From Balneolaceae bacterium (lineage in GTDB: Bacteria; Bacteroidota; Rhodothermia; Balneolales; Balneolaceae): a stretch of 64,000 nucleotides of DNA. The stretch covers positions 310,001 to 374,000 of the forward strand of contig CP051242.1 of NCBI GenBank assembly GCA_017795005.1. The letters run 5' to 3'. The position numbers were made by a program, and so were the translations under genes. The notes under the pieces were generated by a model, which ran no database searches, was not told where the DNA came from, and saw only the letters and a list, made by a program, of their open reading frames with translations. Shown in pieces: positions 49,944 to 64,000 of the stretch; position 1 is the first letter of the stretch, and every line of letters starts with the position of its first letter.

Positions 49944-50696
49944 CTATCCCGGTTTAAGAATTTCATCGTAGATTCGTTTGACCTGAAGATCTCCAAATCC
50001 ATATATCGCTTCCCGGTTACAGAATTCCCGGAATACAGGACCAAAAGACGGATCGTCTAAGTCTTCCATAATTTGTTTTAAAGACTCAACCACTCTGCCG
50101 GGGTCTTTTTCGGATGGAAGTCGTTGAATATGTGCTTCTACAGCCGACGAGATAAAAGGAAAAGAGTCGGCCATTCCTTGAGAAATTTGAGTCAGCTTTT
50201 CCAGCTCATTATGCTGATAAGAAAGCCATAAATCAGAGAAGGAGTTCAGGTTTTGAAGAGGAAGTCTCTCGTCCAAAGCTTCCTGTAGTTCCTTATTATT
50301 TAAATGAGCAAAACTGTAAGGAGAATGAGCTTTGGGAAGAACCAGATACACGTTGTCTGTATGTAATCCTGAATTATGTAATAAATGAACTACAAACCAA
50401 AAGTTAACCTGACAAAACAAGTCCTTTTCAAACCATAGATTGATTTCAGATTCATTTTTAATATTCTGAATCTTCTGAAACTCAGGAACGACATGCTCAA
50501 TGTAAAACTGTTCCGTTTCTCCATAATTCCGACTAAGAAAACTTGCTCTGGTTGAAAAAAAATCCTCTAGATTTTCACAGCTTACATCTCCATCTACTAA
50601 ACACTCACGAGCTACAATTCTTTCCCCGGGAATGGGTTCAGGAAATCGCTCAAGAAGCGCGTCGCCGTTCAGGATGTGGTAAATCTTTTTTTTCAT
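49944..50696 (-). CDS. DUF1835 family protein
   Basis: 250 residues. DUF1835 features: YHILNGDALLERFPEP start, GERIVARECLVDGDV, and LWFEKDLFCQVNFWFVVHLL in the middle; a C-terminal helical part with YGFGDLQVKRIYDEI. Family function unknown. 9 bases after uvrB on the same strand, so probably in one transcript. Confidence 0.85.
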   Translation of the reverse strand: MKKKIYHILNGDALLERFPEPIPGERIVARECLVDGDVSCENLEDFFSTRASFLSRNYGETEQFYIEHVVPEFQKIQNIKNESEINLWFEKDLFCQVNFWFVVHLLHNSGLHTDNVYLVLPKAHSPYSFAHLNNKELQEALDERLPLQNLNSFSDLWLSYQHNELEKLTQISQGMADSFPFISSAVEAHIQRLPSEKDPGRVVESLKQIMEDLDDPSFGPVFREFCNREAIYGFGDLQVKRIYDEILKPG

Positions 50697-50705
50697 AGAT
50701 AAAGA

Positions 50706-52760
50706 TTAAAGCTCCTTTTCAAGTTTACCAATCTGATCTCTGATTCTGGCAGCTTCTTCAAACTCCATGTTTCTGGCAGCCTGAAGCATCGTTTCACGAA
50801 GATGTTCAATGAGCTTATCCTTGCTTTCAAAAGTAACTTCATTCATAGCCGGACTAGCTTTGTATTGAATTCCATCTTCGGCTACTTTGATGGACTCAAG
50901 GTAATCCTGTTCGGCCTGTTTAGCTGCTTCGGCTTCATAATCAAATTTCTGTGTTGAAATAAGAGAAGGATCTACCAGTGGTTTGAGTTCTTTAGCTACT
51001 GTTGTTGGGGTGATACCATGCTCCTTATTATAATCTTCCTGAACTTTGCGCCGGCGTTCTGTTTCATCTAAAACCTTTCTCATACTATCGGTGATTTTAT
51101 CAGCATATAAAATGGCTTTACCCTCCACATTACGAGCTGCCCTACCAACAATCTGAAACAGAGACGTTTCAGATCTCAAAAAACCTTCTTTATCGGCGTC
51201 CATGATTGCGACTAAACTGAGCTCCGGAATATCAATTCCTTCTCTGAGCAAATTGATCCCAACTAACACATCAAAATCACCACGGCGGTATTTATAAATC
51301 ACTTCAATACGCTCAAGAGCATCCAGTTCGCTATGCATATATGCCGCTGAAATCCCAAGATTTTTGAGATATTCACTTAGTTCTTCACTCAATCTCTTGG
51401 TAAGAGTAATAACCAGCACACGTTCTTTTTTGGCTATTCTTATTCTGATTTCTTCCAGCAAATCATCTACCTGATTACCAAGTGGGCGCACTTCAATTTC
51501 AGGTTCCATCAATCCGGTTGGTCGAATTATTTGTTCGGTATAAACTCCACCACTTTTCTCCAGTTCATAATCTCCCGGAGTAGCGCTTACAAAAATAACC
51601 TGATTTACTATTCCCTCCCATTCATCAAAGGTAAGAGGCCTGTTATCCAGAGCTGAAGGAAGCCTAAATCCGTGGTCTACTAATTGAACTTTTCTGGATC
51701 GATCACCGCCATACATGGCGGAAATCTGAGGGATGGTTTGGTGACTTTCGTCAACGACAACCAAAAAATCATCGGGGAAATAATCGAGCAAGCAAAAAGG
51801 ACGCTCACCAGGCTTTCTCGCACTTAAGTAACGGGAGTAATTTTCAATGCCGGAACAATAGCCGATCTCCTGAATCATCTCTATATCGAACAGGGTACGT
51901 TGTTCCAACCGTTTTGCTTCCAGAAACTTCTCTTCATCAATAAGCACTTTTGTTCTCCATTGAAGTTCATCCCTGATTTGATCAATGGACTGTTCCAATC
52001 TGGATTTGGTAGTTACATAATGTGAAGCCGGATAGATCTTAAATTCCTGAACTTCTTCAAGAACATTTCCGGTATCGGTATCGAAGAGTTGGAGTTTTTC
52101 AATTTCATCGCCCCACATGGTGATTCGTAAACCTTCATCCGAATAGGCAGGATAAACATCAATAACATCACCACGAACACGAAATACTCCTCGCCTGAAG
52201 TCATGATCATTTCGGGTATAATGTAAATCCACCATATCATAGAGGAGTTTGTTTCTGGGGATTTCCATTCCGGTTTTTAACGAAACAATCAACTTAGCAT
52301 ACTCCGACGGAGAGCCGATACCGTAAATACAACTCACTGATGAAACAATAATCACGTCCCGGCGCCCGGATAAAAGAGAACTGGTTGCACGTAATCTCAG
52401 CCGTTGAATTTCATCATTAATAGAAAGATCCTTTTCGATGTATTTATCTTGTGCAGAGATATAGGCTTCGGGCTGATAGTAATCGTAATAGGAAATGAAG
52501 AACTCAACACGGTTATCAGGAAAGAAATCACTTAGCTCCCTAAAAAGCTGCGCAGCCAGGGTCTTATTGTGACTCATAACCAGTGTAGGCTTCTGTACAT
52601 TCTCAAGAACATTAGCGATGGTTCTGGTTTTTCCTGAGCCTGTAATTCCCAATAACGTCTGAAATTTATCTCCGGCTTCAACGCCTTCCGTAAGTTCTTC
52701 AATCGCCGTTGGCTGATCACCGGCCGGTTGATAAGGAGAGTGTAATTTGAATTCAGACAT
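50706..52760 (-). CDS. uvrB: excinuclease ABC subunit B
   Basis: 684 residues. Damage-verification helicase of nucleotide excision repair. Walker A TLLGITGSGKT, the beta-hairpin region YYDYYQPEAYI, VVSSVSCIYGIG, DEFLVVVDESH-type DDFLVVVDESHQTIPQ, helicase VGINLLREGIDIPE and QIVGRAARN, and a C-terminal UVR motif (IEHLRETMLQAARNMEFEEAARIRDQ). Full length. The AT-rich region upstream (52761-52966) carries palindromic repeats. Confidence 0.98.
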   Translation of the reverse strand: MSEFKLHSPYQPAGDQPTAIEELTEGVEAGDKFQTLLGITGSGKTRTIANVLENVQKPTLVMSHNKTLAAQLFRELSDFFPDNRVEFFISYYDYYQPEAYISAQDKYIEKDLSINDEIQRLRLRATSSLLSGRRDVIIVSSVSCIYGIGSPSEYAKLIVSLKTGMEIPRNKLLYDMVDLHYTRNDHDFRRGVFRVRGDVIDVYPAYSDEGLRITMWGDEIEKLQLFDTDTGNVLEEVQEFKIYPASHYVTTKSRLEQSIDQIRDELQWRTKVLIDEEKFLEAKRLEQRTLFDIEMIQEIGYCSGIENYSRYLSARKPGERPFCLLDYFPDDFLVVVDESHQTIPQISAMYGGDRSRKVQLVDHGFRLPSALDNRPLTFDEWEGIVNQVIFVSATPGDYELEKSGGVYTEQIIRPTGLMEPEIEVRPLGNQVDDLLEEIRIRIAKKERVLVITLTKRLSEELSEYLKNLGISAAYMHSELDALERIEVIYKYRRGDFDVLVGINLLREGIDIPELSLVAIMDADKEGFLRSETSLFQIVGRAARNVEGKAILYADKITDSMRKVLDETERRRKVQEDYNKEHGITPTTVAKELKPLVDPSLISTQKFDYEAEAAKQAEQDYLESIKVAEDGIQYKASPAMNEVTFESKDKLIEHLRETMLQAARNMEFEEAARIRDQIGKLEKEL

Positions 52761-52847
52761 AAAAAGTGATTTTCAGATGAAAAGAGAGCAAAAAGAAAGG
52801 TAAATTCTTTTAGATTAAGGTTCAGAAAATATTTCGACCTCCTCTGT

Positions 52848-52952
52848 CTCCTCCTTATCAAGGAGGAGGACTCATAAAATAGAATTAGAGGTTAAAGTCC
52901 CCTCTTGAGAGGGGATTTAGCCTGCCTGCCAAAGTATTTCTACGGCGGACAG
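52848..52952. repeat. cluster of nested palindromic repeats upstream of uvrB/tyrA
   Basis: CTCCTCCTT-ATC-AAGGAGGAG (52848-52868) and TCCCCTCT-TG-AGAGGGGA (52898-52915) are two hairpins; then CCTGCCTGCC ... GGACAGG (52921-52952) interrupts the usual tail of the second repeat (GGGATTTAG|GGTGTGTC), as though inserted. Confidence 0.6.
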
Positions 52953-52966
52953 GGGTGTGTCGTTAA

Positions 52967-54118
52967 ATGATAATGAGTGCTAAAATGCCACACAGACATA
53001 AAGAATTAGAAAGTCCGCGGAAACGCATTGACGAAATCGATGAAGAAATACTGGATCTTTTGGCCGAACGTGCTAAAACAGTACAGGATGTGATCCGCGC
53101 TAAGGTGGAAAATAAACTTCCTGTTTTTGTTCCGGAACGAGAGATTGAAAAAAGCGAAGCGTTCAAAAAAATGGCTCAGGAAAAAGGTATTGATCCGGAA
53201 TGGGCAGAAGATTTTCTAAGAATGATAATGAGTTCCTCCAGAGACAGTCAGAGTCAGGAGAAATTTCCGATTGCGACCGAAGAGCCTAAACACATTTTGT
53301 ATATCGGTGGTGAAGGAGGGATGGGGAAACTTTACCAACGGATTACTCGACAAACAGGTCACCATACCTATTCCATTGATAAAGGAAACTGGCATGAACT
53401 GGAAGCGTTGAGTGAACAATTAGATATGGTAATCATAACGGTTCCTATTAATGTCACGGAACAGGTTGTTCAAAGATTACAAGGGCGGCTATCTTCAAAA
53501 ACAATCCTGGCCGATTTTACCAGCAATAAGTCAAAGCCCATGGAGGCGATGCTGGAATATCACGAGGGACCAGTTTTGGGATTACACCCTATGCACGGAC
53601 CTGATGTTGAAAACCTATCCAAGCAGCTGATGGTGGTTTGTCCGGCGCGGGATGGAGATAAAGCGGACTGGTTTATTAAACAGTGTGAGTTATGGGGAAT
53701 GCGGATTGTACATGCGGAGCCCGAAAAACACGATCATGTAATGCACCTGGTACAGGGACTCCGTCACTTTGTGGCATTACTTCATGGCTCATTTATGGAG
53801 CATTATGATTTGAAGCCGGCAGACATGTTGGATTATTCGTCTCCCATTTACCGGGCTGAGTTAATGATGACCGGCCGTATCTTTGCACAAAGCGCAGAAC
53901 TCTATGCAGATATTGTATTTTCTAATAAGGAAAGAAGAGAACTGTTACTCAACTTTTTCGAGCACCATAAAAAACTCGCTGAGCTTGTTGAGCAAAATGA
54001 CCGGGAAGGATTCATCAGAGAATTTGAAGGAGTAACGGACTTCTTCGGAAAATTTGCCACACAAGCTCTTACAGAAAGTGGCTATCTGATAAATCGTTTA
54101 GCAGATAGGTTTGCCTGA
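52967..54118 (+). CDS. tyrA: bifunctional chorismate mutase / prephenate dehydrogenase
   Basis: 383 residues. N-terminal AroQ chorismate mutase (residues ~12-95: PRKRIDEIDEEILDLLAERAK, with the KxxxxxPVFVPERE segment) and NAD-binding prephenate dehydrogenase (ILYIGGEGGMGKLYQRITRQTG onwards; VPINVTEQV, LGLHPMHGPDV, and a C-terminal helical part). This is the E. coli T-protein arrangement. Other starts at residues 3 and 7 are possible. No other aro genes are adjacent. Confidence 0.95.
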   Translation: MIMSAKMPHRHKELESPRKRIDEIDEEILDLLAERAKTVQDVIRAKVENKLPVFVPEREIEKSEAFKKMAQEKGIDPEWAEDFLRMIMSSSRDSQSQEKFPIATEEPKHILYIGGEGGMGKLYQRITRQTGHHTYSIDKGNWHELEALSEQLDMVIITVPINVTEQVVQRLQGRLSSKTILADFTSNKSKPMEAMLEYHEGPVLGLHPMHGPDVENLSKQLMVVCPARDGDKADWFIKQCELWGMRIVHAEPEKHDHVMHLVQGLRHFVALLHGSFMEHYDLKPADMLDYSSPIYRAELMMTGRIFAQSAELYADIVFSNKERRELLLNFFEHHKKLAELVEQNDREGFIREFEGVTDFFGKFATQALTESGYLINRLADRFA

Positions 54119-54146
54119 TTAAAATATCATTATTCTCCTTAAAGAC

Positions 54147-54173
54147 GTCATCCTGAACTTGTTTCAGGATCTT
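54147..54173 (+). repeat. dispersed palindromic repeat, short copy
   Basis: GTCATCCTGAACTTGTTTCAGGATCTT with ATCCTGAA / TTCAGGAT stem; 28 bases after the tyrA stop, so it may act as its terminator. Confidence 0.6.
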
Positions 54174-54202
54174 AAAATCAGGGTTCTAAACGTTGATCCG
54201 CC

Positions 54203-54552
54203 TTTGCTACTTTTGTGCTGACAAAAGTAGCAAAAGCTCCCGGCTGTGATGGCTTCCGGGCATTCAATCCCACGAATTCTACCAAAAACAGATCACCCCA
54301 CAAGTGGGGCATGTTTTAGGGTTTGAATTCTATGGGTTGATTGAATGCTATTCCTCCACCCACCTAATGCCGGATTAATTTAGGCTTAGATATTAAGTAA
54401 AATGCAAACAAAACCAAGTCCGGAAAAAATGGGCAAGCCCAGATGTAAAAGGGAGTGAGGACCGTAATCGCTCTAGTTAACAGCGGCTGGTGAAAATGAA
54501 ATCTGCATTTTTTACGGCGATTTTTGGCTACTTTTGATCGATCAAAAGTAGC
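54203..54552 (+). repeat. long structured non-coding repeat, copy A
   Basis: 350 bases. Left hairpin TTTGCTACTTTTGT/ACAAAAGTAGCAAA (54203-54234), a CCCGG/CCGGG hairpin, a long nested stem with GCATTCAATC (54260-54269) against GATTGAATGC (54339-54348) plus GAATTC pair and a CCCCAC/GTGGGG tip, a conserved 170-base core, and right palindrome GCTACTTTTGATCGATCAAAAGTAGC (54527-54552). The core contains AGTCCGGAAAAAATGGGC, identical to copy B at 59990. It fills most of the 54119-54574 gap, ending 22 bases before the DUF1643 gene. Confidence 0.8.
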
Positions 54553-54574
54553 ACACATAAAGACGATACACTAG

Positions 54575-55114
54575 ATGTTTAAAGACAAACCCTGGATATA
54601 CCACCACGATGAACCTCTTACCCGATATTCTCTAGGTCAGGAAGGGGAGAATCCGCTCATCTGTTTTGGGATAAATCCAAGCACGGCAGTTCCAGAAAAC
54701 CTGGACCCAACAGTGGCTTCAGTAGCGCGTTATGCAGTCGAAAAAAACTACGATGGCTGGCTGATGTTCAATCTCTATCCGCAGCGGGCAACCAACCCGG
54801 ATAAGATGCACAAGCACTTTCAGAAACGGATACACGATAAAAATGTAGAGGTGATCCGGGATCTGATTCACGCTATTCCGAATAAGGAAGCAGACATCTG
54901 GTGTGCCTGGGGAACCCTCATCGAAAAACGCCCATATTTAATGCGCTGTCTGAGAGATATTTACGAAGTGATAGCAGATACCAATTGTAGTTATTTCACC
55001 CGCGGCAACATTTCCAAAGCCGGACATCCACACCATCCGCTATATCTCAGAAAGACCTCACCTATGGATGAGTTTGATCCGAAGAGGTATTTAGCTATGA
55101 TGGACTATCAGTAA
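54575..55114 (+). CDS. DUF1643 family protein
   Basis: 179 residues. DUF1643 features: LICFGINPSTAVPENLDPTVASV, GWLMFNLYPQRATNPD, ADIWCAWGTLIEKRPYL and TRGNISKAGHPHHPLYL near the end. Function unknown; often carried on mobile DNA. It directly follows structured repeat A, and a broken copy of its C-terminal part is at 57061. Last 20 bases overlap the RAYT gene end on the other strand. Confidence 0.85.
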   Translation: MFKDKPWIYHHDEPLTRYSLGQEGENPLICFGINPSTAVPENLDPTVASVARYAVEKNYDGWLMFNLYPQRATNPDKMHKHFQKRIHDKNVEVIRDLIHAIPNKEADIWCAWGTLIEKRPYLMRCLRDIYEVIADTNCSYFTRGNISKAGHPHHPLYLRKTSPMDEFDPKRYLAMMDYQ

Positions 55115-55658
55115 AGAAACGGTCTTTATTCCAGTTTCTGGGATTATTGATAATGTATTCCTGAATTCTATAAAAAGATTCTTCATTTCGAACGATATGA
55201 TCATAATAATTTCTTTGCCAGACCTTCATCCCGGGTGTTTGATTAATGATGTTGATTTGTTTTGCAACATTCATTTTAAACCATCCAATGATTTTCGGGA
55301 CTAACATTTTACGGCGGTAGTTGCGGTAGTGCGCCGGGTCAATATGGTTTCGTAGGGGCGATTCATGAATCGCCCCTACGAATGGTTCTTCATTTGTAAT
55401 TTCGATAATACCATGAATATGATTAGGCATTGTTATGAATTGATGTGTTTTTGTATTCGGAAAGCGAAGCTCGATTTTATTCCAATAATCATGGACAACT
55501 TTGCCACTAGTATTCAAAATCATTTTACCATTATTAACCTCCCCAAAAAGAAAAAGCTTTTGGTAAGTACAGGCGGTTATAAAATATAATCCAGGGTGAG
55601 AATAGTTATAACCCTGTAGCCGAATTGATTTACGATCATGGTTATTAATAGACTTCAT
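55095..55658 (-). CDS. REP-associated tyrosine transposase (RAYT, Y1 family)
   Basis: 187 residues. Single-strand DNA transposase of the IS200/Y1 fold, usually domesticated to spread REP palindromes. LYFITACTYQKLFLFGE opening, HUH metal pair in ITMPNHIHGIIEI and candidate catalytic Tyr in QEYIINNPRNW. An in-frame 34-base palindrome (55349-55382) adds about ten residues (VGAIHESPLR) in the middle, so the protein is either tolerant of it or altered. Candidate mobiliser of the palindromes around it. Ends within the convergent DUF1643 gene. Confidence 0.85.
   Translation of the reverse strand: MKSINNHDRKSIRLQGYNYSHPGLYFITACTYQKLFLFGEVNNGKMILNTSGKVVHDYWNKIELRFPNTKTHQFITMPNHIHGIIEITNEEPFVGAIHESPLRNHIDPAHYRNYRRKMLVPKIIGWFKMNVAKQINIINQTPGMKVWQRNYYDHIVRNEESFYRIQEYIINNPRNWNKDRFFTDSPS
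55349..55382. repeat. 34-bp perfect palindrome inside the RAYT gene
   Basis: Arms TTCGTAGGGGCGATTCA and TGAATCGCCCCTACGAA with no spacer. It codes in frame for part of the RAYT. I saw no second copy in the window. Confidence 0.9.
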
Positions 55659-55764
55659 AATTAGTTAGATCAAGTATTAGGCTTACCCTTACAACATTTC
55701 TTTTATCTACTTTTGTTTACTTACAGCAAAGGACGATATTTCTAATCCAATTAATTAGTTCGCT

Positions 55765-57058
55765 ATGATTCGTGTTTTACTTCTGCTATTTTTTTCAATT
55801 ATAGTTTCTTGTAGCTCTAATAAAGAACCCCCAATTGACTGGGGAGAGTCGCCCTGGCCGGAAATAAGAACAGAACGAATAAATACGCTGTTGCCACGAG
55901 CCATGGAGGCTGCCGGAGTGGATGCATGGCTGGTCATTTGCAGAGAGAATAATAATGATCCGATTGCAGACCATATTGGTGGAGAAAACGCCGGAGGAAC
56001 AGCTGTCTTCTTGTTTTTCAGGGATGAAGATGGGTTTACCTCGAGAGTGTATTCACCATCAGGAGAATCAACAGCGCTGGATGAACTGGATATACACGAT
56101 GAAGTAATATCAGTCGAACGGGGAGGTTCAGCGGTTGAACAGGCCGTGGAGTTTATCAAAGAAAAAGACTTTGAGGTTATTGCGATCAATTCGAGTAGCG
56201 GTAATGCTCAGGCAGACGGATTGAGCTATACACAGCGAATCAATCTGGAAGAACGTTTGGGGGCGGGGTTTTCTGAGCGTTTAGTCTCATCCGAAGAGTT
56301 GATATACGAATGGTTATCTATAAAGCTTCCTGCAGAGGTGGAGATTATGACGAAAGCAGCTGAACTAACGGCACAGTGGCAAATTGAGGCCTATGAAATG
56401 ATTGTTCCCGGCGTTACTACTGATGCTGAAGTTGCTGCGTTTCTGGATGCCAAAATGGAAGAATATGGGGTTGGGGAAGCATGGAGCCCAACCCAAAACC
56501 CGAATGTAAATTCCGGACCCGATCGTGGACATTCACACGCCACTGATAAAGTGATTATGCCCGGAGATGTAATTCAAACAGACTTTGGTATTAAGCTGCA
56601 TGATCGTTGGGTAAGCGATATTCAACGCTTTGCTTATGTGTTGAAACCGGGAGAAACCGAAGCGCCGGAGGACATTCAGTTTTACTGGGAATCGGCGAGA
56701 GCCGGAAACCGTGCAGCCTTTAAAGCGATGAAACCCGGAGTGAAAGGAGTGGAGGTAGATGCCGCCCAGCGTGAGGTGATGAAAGCCAATAACTCGGAAT
56801 ATGTGATGTGGGCATCCGGTAGGATATGTAGCGCATGATACCGGCCCTAATCTTGGAGGCTCACAGTCGCCGAGTATACGTCCGGCAGCCCAAAAAGAAC
56901 TAAAAGCAGGAATGGTTTTTGCATTTGATGGATTCCACGCCTGGATGCTGGAAAATGGTGGAACCAAAACGATTAGTGTAGAAGAAATGGTAGTGATCAC
57001 CGAAGACGGCGCCCGCTGGTTAATCCCGCCTCAGGAAGAGTTGGTGTTGGTGGATTAA
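55765..57058 (+). pseudogene. M24 (Xaa-Pro-type) metallopeptidase with frameshift
   Basis: The frame from ATG 55765 gives a lipoprotein signal (RVLLLLFFSIIVSC) and the peptidase_M24 domain with metal Asp in QTDFGIKLHDRWVSDIQ. It stops at 56838 after WASGRICSA, but from 56810 the next frame continues exactly where the family goes on (GHPVGYVAHDTGPNLGG, then EEMVVITEDGARWL to 57058). So one net frameshift, probably a small deletion near 56808-56813, separates the His-containing region from the rest. Sequencing error is possible. Confidence 0.85.
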
Positions 57059-57060
57059 TT

Positions 57061-57183
57061 TCGTGAATGTATCGCCGAAATTAACGGTTGCAGCTTTACG
57101 CGGGGAAATCTCTCCAAAGCGAGTGGTCCGCACCATCCATTGTAACAAAGAAAAACCTCCCTCATGGATACGGATGATTTGGG
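57061..57183 (+). pseudogene. fragment of a second DUF1643 gene
   Basis: Frame reads ECIAEINGCSFTRGNLSKASGPHHPL, stop, QRKTSLMDTDD: clearly the C-terminal third of a DUF1643 protein (compare TRGNISKAGHPHHPLYLRKTS in 54575-55114). One internal TAA, no start. It directly follows the broken M24 gene. Confidence 0.8.
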
Positions 57184-57202
57184 GGCTATACTAGAAGAAG
57201 AA

Positions 57203-57445
57203 TTAGTTAATCCACTCGATGCAAGTTGGGGTTTTCTGATTCCATGACCTATCTTCTCTTGGATTGAGCATAGTATCATTTTGTATATTTTCTAAATTGG
57301 TGAGAAACCAATAATCAATTTTAGAATTAGACAAATATTTTTCAGCGTCTTTTTTGGATTTAAAAGCATAAAAAATTTCTCCATTATCAATTAAAAACCA
57401 AGTGAATGAATCGGTCCAGTCATTTTCTATAATACTATAAGGCAT
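57203..57445 (-). CDS. hypothetical protein next to HNH endonuclease
   Basis: 80 residues, not recognised. Aromatic-rich (TDSFTWFLIDNGEIFYAFKSKKDAEKYL). Two bases after the HNH gene on the same strand, so it is co-transcribed and may be an accessory or immunity partner. Confidence 0.6.
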   Translation of the reverse strand: MPYSIIENDWTDSFTWFLIDNGEIFYAFKSKKDAEKYLSNSKIDYWFLTNLENIQNDTMLNPREDRSWNQKTPTCIEWIN

Positions 57446-57447
57446 TT

Positions 57448-58188
57448 CTAAGGCTTAAAAATGTGTTGGTTATGATATTCTAAAAAGGAGCTTTCAGGGA
57501 CAAATTTTTCCGGGAGTGTTATTCTTTTACCATGAAGAGAATGAAACGACTTTTTACTATAAGAATCTGATGCATTTGAAATTAATTCTGGCGATATATT
57601 TATGCGAAAACTTGGAGTGATAGTTAACAAACCTAAGTCAAATGCCTTATCGTATAGTACAGAAAGGCAAAGTCCATTTCTTGGGTTCAGCCTATTTTCT
57701 TTATCTAAAGACCATGGCTTAATATGACTTGCAACAAGCAACTTTGGATATGAAAGTCCGGAAATACAGCAGGTATGTTTATAGCTTGATAAAATAGAAT
57801 TTCTGAAAATTGTTTGCTTCCGTCTAGTTTTTGTCTGAACAATTCCATCCTCTGAGAAATAACTATTTTCTTCGCTTTCAATAGTTATTCGGTTAAGTAT
57901 ATAATCTGCTTTTTCGAATGCAGATTCCCAATTATTGTGAAATAGGTCCCAAACTTCTTGGTCCTTAGCAGAAGCGTTTCCTAATCCTGAACGCCCGCTT
58001 TTAATAATTGCGGGATCTAAGCTGGCAAGATTAGCCATTTTCATCGACAAAGCAGAAGGGGTACGGTTTATTCTATCTGCTACTGCTACAATTAATGGGT
58101 TCCTGTGATGAATTTTTCCAAATGGTACCTGACAGTACAATGCAAATGCAACAGTGAGTTCATTATTTGTCCAGTCTCTGCGTACCAT
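57448..58188 (-). CDS. HNH endonuclease
   Basis: 246 residues. C-terminal HNH_2-type core: CCISGLSYPKLLVASHIKPWS, NPRNGLCLSVLYDKAFDLGLLTI, with the paired Cys, His and Asn expected at the metal site. The N-terminal ~100 residues are helical with a KIHHRNP stretch. Stand-alone HNH proteins of this kind are often restriction-like. Pairs with the small 57203 gene. No methyltransferase is adjacent, so it may not be an ordinary restriction enzyme. Confidence 0.8.
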   Translation of the reverse strand: MVRRDWTNNELTVAFALYCQVPFGKIHHRNPLIVAVADRINRTPSALSMKMANLASLDPAIIKSGRSGLGNASAKDQEVWDLFHNNWESAFEKADYILNRITIESEENSYFSEDGIVQTKTRRKQTIFRNSILSSYKHTCCISGLSYPKLLVASHIKPWSLDKENRLNPRNGLCLSVLYDKAFDLGLLTITPSFRINISPELISNASDSYSKKSFHSLHGKRITLPEKFVPESSFLEYHNQHIFKP

Positions 58189-58229
58189 ATTAGTAGTTCA
58201 ACATTTAATTAAAGGTATATCTAATTTAT

Positions 58230-59255
58230 CTAAACAACCAAAGCCACTTTCCCGATATTCTTTCGCTCTTCGATGTAGCGGTGGGCTTCACCAGCTTCTT
58301 CGAGTTTGAAGGTTTTGTCTACATAGGGACGGACCCAACCCGTTTCCACTCCGTCCAGAATGGATTCCATCCAGAGGGCAGCTTTTTCAGCTTCATGCCA
58401 CATATGCCCGAGGTTAACTCCGTATACGCCCCGGTTTTTATCTAACAAAGAAAGAGGTTTAAAGGTGGGCATTCTTAACACCGTTTTAATGAGTTCGATT
58501 TTGGCCCCGATTCCACCGGAGGAATTCTTACTGGCTACCGAAATGCCGAACATACCCAAACGTCCGGTTGTTCTAAGAGCGCGGTAACTTTTTTTCCATT
58601 CTTTACCACCGAGCGGGTCGGTAATGAGTTCCACTCCCCGGTTATCGGTTAGCTTCATCAGTTCCTCAAACCAGTCCTGCGTTCGGTAGTCAATTGCGTG
58701 ATTCAATCCTCGTTTTTTTAGAAAATCATGCTTTCGGGCACTGGCGGTGCCGTAGGTGGTTGCACCAATATTCATAGCAATATCCAGTTGAGCCAGCCCG
58801 ACTCCACCACCGGCATTATGGATGAGTATCGACTCGTCTTTTTTAAGCCCGCCCATCCCTACTAACAGTGCCCATGCAGTTAAGTAGGTAACCGGAATGG
58901 AAGCAGCCTCTTCAAACGAAAGTTTGGCGGGCTTTTCATACACCTGATTTTCTTTGAGCACTACCTGCTCGGCCTGACCTTTAAACCTGCATAGACCAAT
59001 AACTTCTTTTCCAATCCAGTTGTTATCAATGTCGGCACCGACTTCGGTTACTACTCCGGAAACTTCATATCCCATCACGCAAGGTGTTTTGGGTCCATCC
59101 GGGTATTGGCCTTTTCTGGCCAGAATATCCGCAAAATTTAATCCGGCTGCTTTTACCTGAATCAGGAGCTCATCTGTTTCGGGCTTCAGATCCGGAACTT
59201 CCTGAACTTCAAGCACATCATAACTTCCGGTTTTCGTGTTTACTAGTTGTCGCAT
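58230..59255 (-). CDS. MDR-family zinc-independent quinone oxidoreductase-like protein
   Basis: 341 residues. Medium-chain dehydrogenase/reductase: GroES-like N-terminus (AGLNFADILARKGQYPDGPKTPCVMGYEVSGVV), Rossmann loop HNAGGGVGLAQLDIAMN, then VELITDPLGGKEW. No structural zinc Cys cluster; closest to synaptic-vesicle VAT-1/quinone-reductase forms. Substrate unknown. Confidence 0.88.
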   Translation of the reverse strand: MRQLVNTKTGSYDVLEVQEVPDLKPETDELLIQVKAAGLNFADILARKGQYPDGPKTPCVMGYEVSGVVTEVGADIDNNWIGKEVIGLCRFKGQAEQVVLKENQVYEKPAKLSFEEAASIPVTYLTAWALLVGMGGLKKDESILIHNAGGGVGLAQLDIAMNIGATTYGTASARKHDFLKKRGLNHAIDYRTQDWFEELMKLTDNRGVELITDPLGGKEWKKSYRALRTTGRLGMFGISVASKNSSGGIGAKIELIKTVLRMPTFKPLSLLDKNRGVYGVNLGHMWHEAEKAALWMESILDGVETGWVRPYVDKTFKLEEAGEAHRYIEERKNIGKVALVV

Positions 59256-59320
59256 GGTATATATTAAATGAAATGGAGTGTAGGTAGTTTTAAGGAGAGG
59301 GGAAAGTGGGTTTTTTATAA

Positions 59321-59350
59321 GTCATCCTGAGGATACTTCCGAAGGATCTG
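59321..59350 (+). repeat. dispersed palindromic repeat, copy in the 59256-59539 gap
   Basis: GTCATCCTGAGGATACTTCC and GAAGGATCTG, nearly identical to copy 1. The rest of the gap shows nothing clear. Confidence 0.75.
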
Positions 59351-59539
59351 ATTGGGTAATGGCTTCGTGATTTATTTACCCATACCATTTTCAATCAAAG
59401 CTGTCACCCAGAGCTCCCCAAATAATCAACAAAGGAAAAGATGCCTAGCGAAGGGTATCAAACGTGGCTAAGCCCCTGGCAGATTGCTTATTTGATATCC
59501 TTTGTGAGTGAACCCGAAACCATCAGAAAAAATTGAACC

Positions 59540-59914
59540 CTAAAAAGGCAGGTCATCATCAATATCGTCGAAAGCCTGAGTATCGTTTTCGAAGCCTTCG
59601 GCACTTGGGGGTGGTGGGGATTGTTGCACCGCATTTTGTTCTCCGGTTCCGGTTTCCACCCGCCATGCTTTTACATCGGTATACCAGTTTCCGTTGTATT
59701 CCCGACTGGCAATATCTATCGAGACGGTCACTTGCTGTCCTTCCGATACAACCTGCTGATCGATGTTATCACCCCACTGCGTGATGCATACTTTCTTCGG
59801 ATACTTACCCGGAATTTCAAGGATGAAATCGCGTTTTCTCCAGGGACCGTTTTTACCCTGACCGGATTGTTCTTTCAAAATCTGGGATACATTTCCGGTA
59901 AGTTTTAAGTCCAT
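59540..59914 (-). CDS. DUF3127 OB-fold protein with SSB-like tail
   Basis: 124 residues. DUF3127 (OB-like) domain over residues 1-85: LKLTGNVSQILKEQSGQGKNGPWRKRDFILE, DNIDQQVVSEGQQVTVSIDIASREYNGNWYTDVKAW. Then a Pro/acidic linker and the end DDIDDDLPF, which closely copies the SSB C-terminal peptide that docks repair proteins. So it may recruit SSB partners to DNA. Bacteroidota-specific family of unknown function. Confidence 0.9.
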   Translation of the reverse strand: MDLKLTGNVSQILKEQSGQGKNGPWRKRDFILEIPGKYPKKVCITQWGDNIDQQVVSEGQQVTVSIDIASREYNGNWYTDVKAWRVETGTGEQNAVQQSPPPPSAEGFENDTQAFDDIDDDLPF

Positions 59915-59989
59915 GGTAGCAGGTTTTCTTTGGGGTGGATGTGATGACGAATGTAGGTAAAAGGGTATTCAATCTGAAATGCTTTCTAT

Positions 59990-60361
59990 GTTCTTTTGGG
60001 CCGCCAAAAGAACCAAAAGCCCCCGACTACAACTGCTTCGTGGGCTCATAAAAGGTTCAATTGAATAAATCCGAAGGTCCATATTCAGGAAAGCCACATT
60101 TACTTTCCGCCCGGTGCGGATTTATTCCCCTAACGGGACATTGAACCTTTGTATTCACTATCCCACTCACCAGTTTAATGCCGGATAAAATTTGAGGTAG
60201 ATTTAAATAAAGGGCAACAAAAACAAGTCCGGAAAAAATGGGCAAGCCCAGATATTGAAGGGAGTAAGGATCGTAATCGTTCTTGTAACCAGAGGCTCGT
60301 GAAAGCGAAATCTGCATTTTTTACGGCGGCTTTTGGGTACTTTTGACGGTCCAAAAGTACC
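59990..60361 (+). repeat. long structured non-coding repeat, copy B
   Basis: 372 bases. Same parts as copy A: left hairpin GTTCTTTTGG/CCAAAAGAAC (59990-60013), AGCCC/GGGCT hairpin, nested stems AAAGGTTCAA (60051) with TTGAACCTTT (60141), AATAAATCCG (60064) with CGGATTTATT (60117), GGAAAG/CTTTCC tip, the conserved core (AAGTCCGGAAAAAATGGGCA), and right hairpin GGTACTTTTG/CAAAAGTACC (60336-60361). It occupies most of the 59915-60477 gap; the remaining 115 bases before the DUF72 gene hold nothing certain. Confidence 0.8.
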
Positions 60362-60477
60362 AGAGAAAAAGCAATTGGAATTAATCTGGGATGTGAGTTA
60401 TTTACATATCCATCCAACAAAGTAAAACCACCATCACCACCCTCAAAAAATATCATCTTGGTTGTACCGTCTGGAGT

Positions 60478-61299
60478 TTGCAGGAATGGGTAGGTACTTT
60501 CTATAAAGAGAAAACAAAGCCGGGGGACTTTCTTTCTCAATATGCTTCCGTATTTAATTCTGTTGAAGGGAACACCACGTTCTACAGTACCCCATCAAAA
60601 GAGCTGTTACAGCAATGGGCCGATAAAACATCGGATGGGTTTAAGTTTTGTTTTAAGTTTCCAAAAACGATAACCCATATTCACCAACTCAGAAATGTAG
60701 AAACACAAACAAAGGATTTTCTGGAAACCTTTTCAAATGTCAGAGATAAACTGGGACCATTTATGATCCAGTTTCCGGATAGTTTTTCGCCAACAGAACT
60801 GATCAGGTTACAGGATTTTCTGTCAATCTTACCAAAAACAATGCATTACGGAGTAGAGGTTCGTCATCCGGACTTCTTTGATCATGGAAAACATGAACAC
60901 AATCTGAATACCCTACTCGAAAGTTATAACGTAGAACGAATTATTTTTGATACCAGAAAACTCCATTCAAGCAACTCAAGTATTCCTTCAATAGTCGAAG
61001 CAAAAAAGAAGAAGCCGAAGGTACCGGTTCGGTTTGAGGCATTGAGCTCCCGCCCTATGGTTCGTTTTGTCGGAGTAAACGACATTCTGAACAATGAAGT
61101 TTACCTTAAGGAGTGGGCCATAGTCGTAGCTGACTGGATCAGGGAAGGTCTTCATCCCTATATCTTTATTCATTCCCCGGATAAAATCTCACAACCAAAA
61201 CTGTGTACTCATTTTCATAAACTGCTTAGCGAACTAATCGAAATTCAACCTTTACCGGAATGGCCGGTAAACAGAGAAGCGCAATTAGGGTTATTTTAG
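60478..61299 (+). CDS. DUF72 family protein, start uncertain
   Basis: At least 273 residues from TTG 60478. DUF72 (TIM-barrel-like) features: QEWVGTFY, EGNTTFYSTPS, FKFCFKFPKTITHI, LGPFMIQFPDSF, YGVEVRHPDFF, FVGVND and YIFIHSPDKI. The family normally begins with a GC..W motif; codons for that (LGCTVWS) are in frame just upstream, but no ATG, GTG or TTG start precedes them before a stop at 60394. Structured repeat B ends 36 bases before that stop, so an insertion may have cut the original start. Function of DUF72 is unknown. Confidence 0.8.
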   Translation: MQEWVGTFYKEKTKPGDFLSQYASVFNSVEGNTTFYSTPSKELLQQWADKTSDGFKFCFKFPKTITHIHQLRNVETQTKDFLETFSNVRDKLGPFMIQFPDSFSPTELIRLQDFLSILPKTMHYGVEVRHPDFFDHGKHEHNLNTLLESYNVERIIFDTRKLHSSNSSIPSIVEAKKKKPKVPVRFEALSSRPMVRFVGVNDILNNEVYLKEWAIVVADWIREGLHPYIFIHSPDKISQPKLCTHFHKLLSELIEIQPLPEWPVNREAQLGLF

Positions 61300-61919
61300 T
61301 TTTCAATAACCCCAATAAGGGCAGTACTCAGAACAAAGGGAAGCTTTTCTATTTTTGTCATAAGTTCGGCTTCTTCTCCTGGTGTACAGGCTATGTTCAC
61401 AGATCGGGGATAATCTTTGAGGATTTGATAAGCCACACTCCTGAATTCACCCATAATTTCCTTGAGCCGCATTGTGTTTACGGTATACTCAAATTCAAAA
61501 AAAAGCTCTTCAATACTCTGTGATGATATTAACCTTATTAAAGCCTGTTCACGTTCAGTACCATTCAGTCCTTGTTCTTCTAAGAGATTTTCAAAAAAAG
61601 AGGTATCGACCGGCGCGCTTTGAGAAAAAGAACGAAGGACTTCCGGGTGGTTTTGCAGCTGATTCAATACGGAGTCGGCGGGATTATTCACTATAGAAAT
61701 CAGAATGGGTTGTATATCAATGTAAGAGATTTCATACCCAAGCTGCTTAAACTGCTCTTCAATAAAATCACTTGAAACGGTGTCTTCTAAGAAGACGATA
61801 AATTCTCCCTCCAGAAAAGAAACCTGTCCATCCTGCACCTTTTGGAGAGCTTCATCTCCAATTACCTGTCCATAAATTAATTGGGGTAAAAAGCTTACAA
61901 AAAGAAGAAAGTACTTCAC
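61296..61919 (-). CDS. secreted protein with two I9-like repeats (second of a tandem pair)
   Basis: 207 residues with signal peptide (MKYFLLFVSFLPQLIYGQ). Two similar segments follow the pattern beta-alpha-beta-beta-alpha-beta of subtilisin-prodomain (inhibitor I9) folds: residues ~33-95 (FIVFLEDTVSSDFIEEQFKQLGYEI...NHPEVLRSF) and ~132-200 (LFFEFEYTVNTMRLKEIM...KLPFVLSTAL). Overlaps the end of the DUF72 gene by 4 bases and starts inside the stop of its paralogue (ATGA). Function unknown; a protease-inhibitor role is only a guess. Confidence 0.65.
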   Translation of the reverse strand: MKYFLLFVSFLPQLIYGQVIGDEALQKVQDGQVSFLEGEFIVFLEDTVSSDFIEEQFKQLGYEISYIDIQPILISIVNNPADSVLNQLQNHPEVLRSFSQSAPVDTSFFENLLEEQGLNGTEREQALIRLISSQSIEELFFEFEYTVNTMRLKEIMGEFRSVAYQILKDYPRSVNIACTPGEEAELMTKIEKLPFVLSTALIGVIEN

Positions 61920-62473
61920 TCAAAGATCTCCGTAGTATTTCGAACATAAATCAGCATATTAAGTTCTGCCATCAGTCTTGATGGAACTTTAGTAGGATTA
62001 AGAACCACGCTTCTTGTTCTTCTTGGCAGGATCTCAATTCCTAACTTTTGGTTTTGAAATAGAAAAGCTTCTATCATTTCATCGGTAACATAATAGCTGA
62101 ACGCGATTTTTCTTCGGGTATTATCGCCGAAGTAGAGGTTAGAGCCCAGAAATGGTGATGTAAATTCGTACGATTCAATTTTTATATCCTGAACAAAGGG
62201 GTGTGCAGAAATTCGTTTTAATTCAGATTCGCTAATCTGTCTGGTAATTACACCCTGCACCGGCGCTATTTCCATAGATTCAATATCATAGCCAAAGCGA
62301 TAGAAATAATACTCAACGAACTCCGGGCTTACATAATCTTCCAGCTCCACCAGCACCCTGTGTTTATCTATTCCATGCAGATAAGGCAGCCGCTGAATGT
62401 TTGACTGTTGTTGAAAATCAAACATGGCAAAAAAGAAAAACAGGATTTGAAGCGAAATAAATGAAAGGTTCAT
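61916..62473 (-). CDS. secreted protein with two I9-like repeats (first of a tandem pair)
   Basis: 185 residues with a hydrophobic N-terminus (NLSFISLQILFFFFAMF). Segment ~38-98 (VLVELEDYVSPEFVEYYFYRFGYDI...HPFVQDI) and ~115-175 (KIAFSYYVTDEMIEAFLFQN...) repeat the same strand-helix layout as the downstream gene, so the two genes look like duplicates. Overlaps the next gene by 4 bases. Divergent from prfC. Confidence 0.65.
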   Translation of the reverse strand: MNLSFISLQILFFFFAMFDFQQQSNIQRLPYLHGIDKHRVLVELEDYVSPEFVEYYFYRFGYDIESMEIAPVQGVITRQISESELKRISAHPFVQDIKIESYEFTSPFLGSNLYFGDNTRRKIAFSYYVTDEMIEAFLFQNQKLGIEILPRRTRSVVLNPTKVPSRLMAELNMLIYVRNTTEIFE

Positions 62474-62600
62474 GGGATACTCAGGTATTGTTTTATAAAG
62501 GATTAAACCTACGCCCCAAATAAATCAAAAATGACCAAACACAAAAGAGTAAAAATCATCGTATTTTCAGGTCTTTATAAATCACTGATACAAGTTTACG

Positions 62601-64000
62601 ATGTCACAAACGGCAACAGCCGATTCAAATATCATTAAAGAGGCTAAGAAGAGACGCACCTTCGCGATTATTTCTCACCCGGATGCAGGTAAAACCACCC
62701 TTACCGAAAAGTTATTGCTTTATGGTGGAGCTATTCACGAAGCAGGATCGGTTCGTGCCAGAAAAGCTTCCCATCACGCTGCATCCGACTGGATGGCTAT
62801 CGAAAAGGAACGTGGGATTTCTGTGACTTCATCCGTGATGCGCTTTGAAAAAGAAGGCATCAAATACAACCTGCTGGATACTCCGGGTCACAAAGACTTT
62901 TCTGAAGATACTTTGAGAACCTTAGTGGCTGCAGATTCAGGCTTAATGGTAATTGACGTTGCTAAAGGGGTGGAGGAACAAACCGAGAAGTTATTTGAAG
63001 TCTGTAAACTTAGAGAAGTTCCGGTAATTACCTTTGTGAATAAATGTGACCGCCCCGGTATGGATCCATTGGAAGTATTAAGTAATGTAGAAAATAAACT
63101 CGGAATTGAAGCATTGCCTGCAAGTTGGCCAATGGGATATGGTCAAAAATTTCAGGGTATTTATGATGTGCTGGGTGGTAAAGTTCATATATATGAAAAA
63201 GCAGATCATGGTGCCAAAAAGGCGGTAACTGAAGTTCTGGATGTGGAAGAGGCGTTGGCGCAAAGTAATTTATCGGATGCAGAAAAAGATGCGTTTCGTG
63301 AAGAATTGATGCTCATCGAGGATATGTATCCAAATATGGATAAAGAGCTGTATAACAAAGGAAAAGTGACGCCAGTGTTCTTTGGGTCTGCACTGAATAA
63401 CTTTGGTCTGGATGTGTTCCTTAATTATTTTCACCAGCTTGCACCATCGCCTCAGGGATATGAACATTCAGAAGGAAATGACCGTGATTTAAATGAGCCG
63501 TTTTCGGGATTCATTTTTAAGATGCAGGCAAATATGAATCCGGGTCACCGCGATTGCGCAGCTTTTATCCGGGTAGCTTCGGGTCAGTTTAAAAGAGGAC
63601 AGGAAGTGGTTCTATCACACACAGGTAAAAAGCTAAAAATGGCAACGCCACATACTTTGATGGGTGATGAGCGTCAATTAATGGAAGAGGCTTTTCCGGG
63701 AGACATTGTATCGATTTTTAACCCGGGGGATTTCAGAATCGGAAGTACCATTTTTGAAAAAAATCCGGTTCGCTTTGATGTAATCCCGCTCTTTACTCCC
63801 GAGCATTTTCAGAAAGTTGCTACCAAAGATCCGTTTAAAAGGAAGCAACTTCGGGAAGGCTTAAAACAACTTTCGGAAGAAGGAGTGGTTCATGTATTTG
63901 AAGTGCCAAATGGTGTGGGTAATGAATTGCTGCTTGGAACGGTTGGAGTTCTGCAGTTTGAAGTTGTTCACCATCGAATGAAAGAAGAATACGGGGTGGA
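62601..64000 (+). CDS. prfC: peptide chain release factor 3, 3' truncated by window edge
   Basis: 466 codons visible, frame open to the end. GTPase that recycles RF1/RF2. G1 SHPDAGKTTLTEKLL, switch with RGISVTSSVM, G3 DTPGHKDFSEDT, G4 FVNKCDRPG, then domain II (FGSALNNFGLDVFLNYF, FIFKMQANMNPGHRDCAAFIRV) typical of RF3 rather than EF-G. Starts at ATG 62601, 127 bases divergent from the I9-like pair. The C-terminal domain lies outside the window. Confidence 0.97.
   Translation, partial: MSQTATADSNIIKEAKKRRTFAIISHPDAGKTTLTEKLLLYGGAIHEAGSVRARKASHHAASDWMAIEKERGISVTSSVMRFEKEGIKYNLLDTPGHKDFSEDTLRTLVAADSGLMVIDVAKGVEEQTEKLFEVCKLREVPVITFVNKCDRPGMDPLEVLSNVENKLGIEALPASWPMGYGQKFQGIYDVLGGKVHIYEKADHGAKKAVTEVLDVEEALAQSNLSDAEKDAFREELMLIEDMYPNMDKELYNKGKVTPVFFGSALNNFGLDVFLNYFHQLAPSPQGYEHSEGNDRDLNEPFSGFIFKMQANMNPGHRDCAAFIRVASGQFKRGQEVVLSHTGKKLKMATPHTLMGDERQLMEEAFPGDIVSIFNPGDFRIGSTIFEKNPVRFDVIPLFTPEHFQKVATKDPFKRKQLREGLKQLSEEGVVHVFEVPNGVGNELLLGTVGVLQFEVVHHRMKEEYGV

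What the first reader, a model, noticed from the sequence alone, without database searches (positions are those of the whole stretch)
54203..60361. Two copies of a ~360-base structured element with covarying stems
Seen: copies at 54203-54552 and 59990-60361 share order of parts: end hairpins with ACTTTTG/CAAAAGT, a small GC hairpin, a three-tier nested stem, and a ~170-base core with long identical stretches. The nested stems in the first half have different sequences in the two copies yet still pair (GCATTCAATC/GATTGAATGC versus AAAGGTTCAA/TTGAACCTTT). Preserved pairing with changed bases suggests selection on a fold, as in a structured RNA or a transposable DNA hairpin. Both are on the plus strand before plus-strand genes. 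I know of no named family for it, but similar ends with ACTTTTG are familiar in Bacteroidota genomes.
Basis: partly seen in the sequence, partly recalled or inferred. Interest (0 to 1): 0.75.

Follow-up and report, generated by a model that had tools for sequence, protein, structure and literature searches.

The report
Widespread folded-DNA mobile repeat units
The two matching stretches are old copies of a large, apparently unnamed family of self-folding DNA repeats that carry no gene and, in related bacteria, travel inside unrelated small transposons; their stems seem to be preserved as DNA rather than as RNA.

Summary
Copies A (54206-54552) and B (59990-60361) are each a tail-to-tail pair of ~150-215-nt units: an end hairpin (CTTTTG/CAAAAG), then nested stems. 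A covariance model built from 18 units finds the fold in 71 of 89 genomes of the family, and finds the left half of A (not a training sequence) at E 1.5e-15. In 49 units outside the training set 93.1% of cells pair (shuffled 69.5%) and 340 cells changed on both sides (shuffled 98). G-U pairs are 0.3% of cells, no more than A-C mismatches, against 6.3% in RNase P RNA of the same bacteria. This points to the DNA palindrome, not a transcript, as what is preserved. In Balneola-group genomes the units ride in an IS481-type miniature element (one insertion shown with three empty sites and a 5-bp target duplication). In another genus nine of nine copies examined ride in a different element with 8-10-bp duplications. 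The window copies carry neither end, their own movement is not shown, and no enzyme for the bare unit was found. Rfam has no match. I rate it a new variant of a known kind: non-autonomous palindromic mobile DNA.

The parts
54206..54231 (+). Copy A, left end hairpin GCTACTTTTG/CAAAAGTAGC
   Evidence: folds
54205..54389 (+). Copy A, left unit (type L1): hairpin, CAAAAG, GC hairpin, three-tier nested stem 54260-54348
   Evidence: R1 match 54.8 bits E 1.5e-15; covariation in A3
54239..54260 (+). Copy A, small GC hairpin CCCGG/CCGGG
   Evidence: in the minimum-energy fold four of these pairs form
54260..54348 (+). Copy A, nested stem with arms 54260-54269 and 54339-54348, inner arms GAATTC and CCCCAC/GTGGGG
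   Evidence: both-side changes across 7 aligned sequences
54400..54553 (-). Copy A, right unit (type R) facing the left one, stem CCGGAAAAAATG (54420-54431) with CATTTTTTACGG (54506-54517), plus right end hairpin
   Evidence: R1 21.3 bits E 3.2e-5; alignment A2
54527..54552 (+). Copy A, right end hairpin
   Evidence: fold
59988..60200 (+). Copy B, left unit (type L2)
   Evidence: R1 178 bits (a training sequence); alignment A1
59990..60013 (+). Copy B, left end hairpin GTTCTTTTGG/CCAAAAGAAC
60051..60150 (+). Copy B, nested stems AAAGGTTCAA/TTGAACCTTT enclosing GAATAAATCCG/CGGATTTATTC
60215..60361 (-). Copy B, right unit (type R) with stem CCGGAAAAAATG (60229-60240) with CATTTTTTACGG (60315-60326) and end hairpin 60336-60361
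   Evidence: R1 matches only around its end hairpin, 60307-60362, 23.4 bits
54146..54174 (+). CGTC-type REP palindrome just upstream of copy A (type named after PMC3733652)
   Evidence: such a repeat end lies upstream of 7 of 18 units examined in the genus

Best explanation
A and B are old, inherited copies of a gene-less, palindromic mobile-DNA unit. One unit is ~185-215 nt (the R halves ~150): an end hairpin whose loop often pairs with a segment behind a second CAAAAG, then a nested stem whose arms change in concert. Units occur alone, head to head or tail to tail; A and B are tail-to-tail pairs. Shown in relatives: units are carried by miniature transposons with quite different ends, one IS481-type with 5-bp target duplications and one with ends GAGRASTTACCCC and 8-10-bp duplications. 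Inferred: the unit folds as DNA (cruciform, or single strand during replication), and the fold is kept either because a DNA-processing enzyme reads it or because template switching between arms keeps it palindromic; it spreads by landing in, or being captured by, small transposons and by recombination between paired units. Not shown: transposition of the window's own copies, or an enzyme that moves the bare unit.
For: Fold and copies: R1 in 71 of 89 family genomes; 49 units from 38 of 40 loci outside the training set pair in 93.1% of cells against 69.5% shuffled, 340 both-side changes against 98, and all six slid controls lower. DNA level: G-U 0.30%, A-C 0.82%, both-side to one-side changes 286:3 over the 29 of 38 pairs that passed the filter, against RNase P RNA 6.28%, 0.67% and 342:90 with the same script; before filtering, 11 G-U and 30 A-C among 1592 cells. 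Loop to downstream pairing: mean longest complement 4.25 nt over 64 distinct combinations; 0 of 2000 shuffles reach it. Mobility of a carrier: the 575-bp composite of G003 is missing, flanks contiguous, in G007, G009 and G004, target duplication AACGG; an IS481 transposase lies between the same ends in L285; 27 of 41 Balneolaceae loci with the exact end hold the unit. Second carrier in G067: shared ends in 9 of 9 copies, perfect 8-10-bp direct repeats in 7 of 9 and imperfect ones in 2 of 9 (my reading). Presence/absence in the genus: B is absent from G001 at the orthologous place.
Against: The window's copies carry no IS481 end and no clear target duplication, and the flanks in sister genomes are too diverged to read an exact empty site. 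In 22 of 24 unit loci checked no pair of either known end was found, so most of these units have no demonstrated mover. The right half of A is also at the orthologous place in G002, so A is inherited rather than recently moved. A5 was aligned by a model that expects few G-U pairs, and 20 of its 38 loci were found by that model. In the small alignments A1-A3 G-U is about 3% and exceeds A-C, though RNAalifold chose those pairs. About 44% of loop combinations have a complement under 4 nt.
Confidence: 0.62

Rival explanations
1. A structured noncoding RNA family, or cis-regulatory RNA elements, that happens to be multi-copy; the stems are selected in the transcript.
For: Strong covariation; conserved unpaired segments such as GGTCC and GCCGGT; folding z-scores of -3.8 to -6.1 with RNA energies; about 3% G-U, above A-C, in the small alignments A1-A3.
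Against: At positions fixed beforehand (A5) G-U pairs are no commoner than A-C mismatches and about twentyfold rarer than in RNase P RNA; covariation there is almost purely both-sided; no Rfam match at gathering score; the units sit in transposon interiors, in either orientation.
Confidence: 0.13
2. Repeats moved by a REP-associated tyrosine (HUH, IS200-like) transposase that reads the folded single strand, so a long kind of REP/BIME.
For: Hairpin units in head-to-head and tail-to-tail pairs, like REPs in BIMEs; Y1 gene counts correlate with unit counts over 89 genomes (Spearman 0.60; 0.43 after genome size); a Y1-like gene lies between A and B at 55095-55658 (21 bits against a cut-off of 23).
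Against: 11 of 71 genomes with units have no Y1 match, five of them with 5-17 units (G060 17, G013 15), and 3 of 18 genomes without units have one; around the five own-genome Y1 matches only two weak one-mismatch hairpin matches were seen (L065, L074).
Confidence: 0.2
3. A neutral palindrome kept perfect by intra-strand template switching: no fold is selected, and the arms simply correct each other.
For: Changes are almost always on both sides and without wobble, which correction predicts as well as selection does.
Against: Unpaired motifs, the hairpin end and the loop-to-downstream pairing, which is not a simple palindrome, are kept across genera.
Confidence: 0.2

Closest known systems
REP / BIME / REPIN repeats with RAYT transposases (GTAG and CGTC families, PMC3733652; BIME and REPIN partly recalled)
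   Same: Intergenic palindromic repeats, many copies, often inverted pairs, gene-less; the end of a CGTC-type REP lies upstream of 7 of 18 units examined in the genus.
   Different: Units are ~200 nt with nested stems and a loop-to-downstream pairing, not 20-40 bp; no GTAG or CGTC tag of their own seen; not strictly tied to Y1 genes.
MITEs of IS481-type and other insertion sequences
   Same: In the Balneola group and in G067 the units lie between terminal inverted repeats with target duplications.
   Different: The same fold sits between unrelated ends, and 22 of 24 other loci checked show no pair of either; elements with the IS481-type end in 22 loci of other organisms do not hold the unit, nor do 14 of 41 Balneolaceae loci (one of the 14 has only a weak match).
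Rickettsia palindromic elements and other large bacterial palindromic repeats (recalled; RPE is named in a passage of PMC3733652)
   Same: Palindromic inserts longer than REPs with a conserved fold (recalled).
   Different: No sequence comparison was made here; A and B are intergenic, whereas the passage seen describes RPE inside genes.

Membership tests
Structured RNA family (Rfam-type) | Match to a described family | tested here: not met
   0 matches at gathering score in window 50000-64000 and in nine loci holding copies; three sub-threshold matches, E 1.7-2.6, with permissive search
Structured RNA family (Rfam-type) | Covariation that includes G-U wobble pairs at RNA-like frequency | tested here: not met
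   0.30% in A5 (about 3% in A1-A3) against 6.28% in 23 of 29 RNase P RNAs; six with long inserts were left out
Structured RNA family (Rfam-type) | Expressed transcript | not testable with these tools
   no expression data
REP/RAYT system | 20-40-nt palindrome with GTAG or CGTC tag | tested here: not met
   unit is ~150-215 nt and its ends are CTTTTG/CAAAAG hairpins
REP/RAYT system | RAYT (Y1) gene flanked by or co-occurring with the repeat | tested here: inconclusive
   correlated counts, but 11 genomes have units and no Y1 match; only two weak hairpin matches at Y1 loci
MITE (window copies A and B) | Terminal inverted repeats | tested here: inconclusive
   the end hairpins form an inverted pair, but each is itself a palindrome; no IS481 end
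MITE (window copies A and B) | Target-site duplication and exact empty site | tested here: inconclusive
   B absent in G001 but flanks too diverged; A partly present in G002
MITE (Balneola-group carrier of the units) | Terminal inverted repeats, target duplication, empty site | tested here: met
   575-bp insertion in G003, AACGG duplication, contiguous flanks in G004, G007, G009; duplication perfect in 3, one mismatch in 2, not matching in 3 of 8 copies with both ends in hand
Integron attC sites | Folded-strand recombination site used by an IntI integrase | not tested
   no search for IntI was made

The most novel reading that the evidence does not exclude
The unit is an independent selfish DNA fold: a single-stranded-DNA structure with a pseudoknot, moved by an undescribed DNA-processing enzyme of Bacteroidota, which keeps entering unrelated miniature transposons and so changes carrier from lineage to lineage. 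It would be a deep family defined by DNA structure in the way RNA families are defined by RNA structure.
Probability: 0.27. Interest if true: 0.82.

Novelty: new variant of a known kind. Interest (0 to 1): 0.6.

Why it matters
Covariation is often taken as evidence of a functional RNA. Here a large covarying family very probably lives in DNA, and a simple measurement (G-U pairs against A-C mismatches, with RNase P as yardstick) separates the two cases; the same test could be applied to other RNA motifs proposed from covariation alone. It also exposes a repeat found in 71 of 89 genomes of this family and in several other families of the phylum, for which I found no name in Rfam or in the papers searched, and it gives a concrete open question: which enzyme, if any, reads the fold.

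Tried and rejected
RNA family: Rfam at gathering threshold and with permissive E-values (three sub-threshold matches) gave nothing useful. Phage and plasmid collections: no match for copy B or, on plasmids, for a copy from G155; four IMG/VR contigs hold the strict end pattern, not followed up. RAYT as mover: tested by gene flanks and by counts over 89 genomes and not accepted as the main explanation. The CTACTTTTG box upstream of the Y1-like gene in the window was first taken for a broken end hairpin; it may be a Bacteroidota -7 promoter box (TAnnTTTG, recalled) of the gene at 55765. IS481 ends around the window's copies: the eight matches with 4-5 mismatches in the window are elsewhere. IS481 carrier as a general explanation: rejected, since G067 uses other ends and 22 of 24 loci checked show no pair of either. 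First counts on A1 to A3 gave more G-U than A-C in A1 and A2 and equal numbers in A3 (filtered, more in all three), partly because RNAalifold may choose G-U columns; the A5 count, at positions fixed beforehand, did not show this. A first statement of mine, that only two of 32 IS481-type loci hold the unit, rested on a subset poor in Balneola loci; on the 41 Balneolaceae loci corrected it to 27 of 41. Literature: nine searches. PMC3733652, PMC2864571, PMC12548429, PMC9769881: matching passages seen; PMC2267715: searched for five group or genus names, none found; all others only as search listings. None described the unit; most subscription journals are not in that library.
Full report
What is there. 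Copies A (54206-54552) and B (59990-60361) lie in intergenic DNA on the plus strand, before plus-strand genes for DUF1643 (54575) and DUF72 (60478) proteins. Each begins and ends with a ~25-nt hairpin, CTTTTG-loop-CAAAAG; the left one is followed by a second CAAAAG. Between them lie a left body with three nested stems and a right body with the stem CCGGAAAAAATG/CATTTTTTACGG. All six folds made beat all 100 dinucleotide shuffles.

How the unit was recognised. Related loci in the own genome and genus showed the halves in other combinations: left types L1, L2, L3 and right type R in the pairs L1+R (A), L2+R (B), L3+R, L3 with inverted L2, and L1 with inverted L3, tail to tail; L019 and L029 are head to head. 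Alignments of 18 L2/L3/Balneola-group units (A1), 15 R halves (A2) and 7 L1 halves (A3) gave consensus folds with 38, 20 and 48 pairs, of which 23, 8 and 25 have changes on both sides.

Test outside the training set. A covariance model (R1, from A1) found matches in 71 of 89 genomes of the family, 16 in the own genome (only about 26 candidates per genome were scored, so high counts are lower bounds). It found the left half of A, not used in training, at E 1.5e-15, the right halves only weakly, and copies in genomes outside the own class (G177, G155) at E 1e-18 to 6e-17. From 40 loci outside the training set, 38 gave 49 units at E 1e-13 or better. On these 93.1% of cells form standard pairs (shuffled 69.5 +- 0.7), 340 cells have both sides changed (shuffled 98 +- 8), and sliding the partner by 1-3 columns drops pairing to 38-60%. 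Twenty of the 38 loci had been found by the model itself, so they are independent in sequence but not in selection, and an alignment fitted to a structure leans towards it. The loop of the end hairpin is often complementary to the segment behind the second CAAAAG (CTTGAT/ATCAAG, CTTGAA/TTCAAG, GCGAC/GTCGC, GTGAT/ATCAC): over 64 distinct combinations, taken from the 109 of 150 aligned matches that hold the motif, the mean longest complement is 4.25 nt, and 0 of 2000 shuffles reach that. About 44% of the combinations have a complement under 4 nt, so this contact is not universal.

DNA or RNA. In RNA stems G-U pairs are stable and serve as stepping stones; in DNA G-T is about as bad as A-C (established knowledge). 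With one script and the same filters, RNase P RNAs from the same bacterial family (23 of the 29 found; six with long inserts were left out) gave 6.28% G-U, 0.67% A-C and 342 both-side against 90 one-side changes; the 49 units gave 0.30% G-U, 0.82% A-C and 286 against 3 over the 29 of 38 pairs that passed the filter. Without the filter the units have 11 G-U and 30 A-C among 1592 cells. The small alignments A1-A3, where RNAalifold chose the pairs, gave about 3% G-U and 0.7-1.1% A-C; this is below RNase P but does lean towards G-U, and I report it as evidence against my reading. On balance what keeps the arms matched acts on DNA: recognition of a cruciform or folded single strand, or template switching between arms. 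These two cannot be separated here.

Movement. In G003 (Balneola sp. EhC07 by contig name and length) two units lie head to head inside a 575-bp composite. Of six relatives searched with this locus, the site is empty with contiguous flanks in G007, G009 and G004, where the junction was read; G006 holds the insertion, split over two contigs; G008 shows both flanks close together but its junction was not read; G010 showed one flank only in the list. In G003 the insertion is flanked by AACGG on both sides. The ends read TGTAGATGTYANNTAATTC. Of 8 copies with both ends in hand, 3 have a perfect and 2 a one-mismatch 5-bp duplication, and 3 do not match (reading). In 8 of 20 left ends the flank directly abutting is the arm of a GTCATCC-type REP (reading). 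The same end occurs in many phyla (97 stretches, 80 delivered as loci); a pair of such ends was found in 33 of the 80 loci, with a perfect 5-bp duplication in 11. In L285 (a Dehalococcoidia assembly) they enclose a 343-aa transposase whose best NCBIfam match is IS481 (E 1e-57, but under the curated cut-off: 195.8 against 224 bits). Of the 41 loci with Balneola, Balneolaceae or Gracilimonas names, 27 hold the unit at E 1e-12 or better, one has a weak match (E 8e-4) and 13 have none; of 22 loci of other organisms tested, none does. In G067 nine of nine unit copies examined lie in another element of about 340 bp with ends GAGRASTTACCCC, with perfect direct repeats of 8-10 bp in 7 of 9 and imperfect ones in 2 of 9. 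Of 24 loci checked for both kinds of end, two show a pair: L141, which is one of those nine G067 copies again, and L154 in G054, whose flanks do not match each other. So the fold is carried by at least two unrelated transposon ends, and in most loci checked by none that I recognise.

The window's own copies. They have neither end nearby (IS481 end; the other end was not scanned for by script in the window, but no such sequence is seen at the flanks). B is missing from the orthologous gap in G001 (138 bases against 577), and G002 has different, smaller hairpins there. The right half of A is also in G002 at the orthologous place, while G001 has a gene there. A is thus probably older than the split from G002. 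Upstream of 7 of 18 units of the genus, A included, lies the end of a CGTC-type REP (G[G/A]ATCTTA within 130 nt; 1.0% of 4000 random positions); the REP 5' arm itself was found in 5 of 18 against 6.3%.

Who moves the bare unit is open.

Mechanism, with steps marked. Shown: a covarying fold, very few wobble pairs, carriage by two kinds of miniature transposon, presence/absence between relatives of one genus. Inferred: the unit is captured by or inserts into such elements because they and it share intergenic REP-rich sites; pairs arise by insertion next to each other, and exchange of halves between pairs explains the mosaic, for example one locus (next to a gene that I recall as a 3-methyladenine glycosylase) where G000 has an L2 half and G002 an R half. 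Unknown: the enzyme, and whether the fold brings the host anything.

Novelty. No Rfam family matched at its gathering score (permissive). Nine paper searches gave no description of the unit; a PCR primer for a BT1222 deletion in Bacteroides thetaiotaomicron contains CTTTTGCCTTGATGCAAAA, most of the end hairpin (PMC12548429), which suggests that a model organism carries it. I therefore call it a new variant of a known kind, palindromic non-autonomous mobile DNA.

Noticed in passing
L266-L345, e.g. L285:2230-3278, L313:1477-2033, L278:580-924: The end TGTAGATGTYANNTAATTCRYT occurs in assemblies of many phyla (Patescibacteria and Alphaproteobacteria among them); perfect 5-bp target duplications were seen in 11 loci, of Balneolaceae, Gracilimonas, Chloroflexota, a gammaproteobacterium and a Clostridia assembly. 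It goes with an IS481-type transposase, and several insertions abut GTCATTCC/GTCATCCC palindromes, so this IS group may target REPs.
   Followed up: partly
L312:1089-1610 (ORF 1202-1495); L280:2673-3195 looks alike: A ~522-bp element with the same IS481-type ends carries, instead of the folded unit, REP palindromes and a 97-aa GIY-YIG protein (Pfam E 7e-13), a different cargo in the same group of genomes.
   Followed up: partly
L116:1-400 (G004:C8) and L111:5900-6450 (G009:C8): At what looks by eye like the same locus (same neighbouring gene) the two-unit composite lies in opposite orientations in two Balneola-group genomes.
   Followed up: no
L116:47-92, L031:1282-1320, L003:1685-1718: In some units the loop of the end hairpin is itself enlarged by another palindrome, a repeat nested in a repeat.
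   Followed up: no
G000:C1:540556-541045 (L204) and L206, L208, L209, L211, L214: RNase P RNA matches of the window's genome and of five relatives are 473-494 nt long, against 353-425 nt in the 23 others; the extra part is not the unit.
   Followed up: partly
window 55095-55658 (-): A Y1-transposase-like gene between the two copies holds an in-frame palindrome (CGTAGGGGCGATTCATGAATCGCCCCTACG) inside its coding sequence.
   Followed up: no
window 55765-57058 (+): The reading frame of a peptidase-like gene (my reading) appears broken near its 3' end: it stops at 56838 and a likely tail follows in another frame.
   Followed up: no
L123 and L125: In two distant genomes of the phylum the unit occurs in head-to-tail arrays with a spacing of 270-490 bases, in one of them next to trinucleotide microsatellites.
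   Followed up: no
L382-L385: Four IMG/VR viral contigs contain the strict end pattern of the unit.
   Followed up: no
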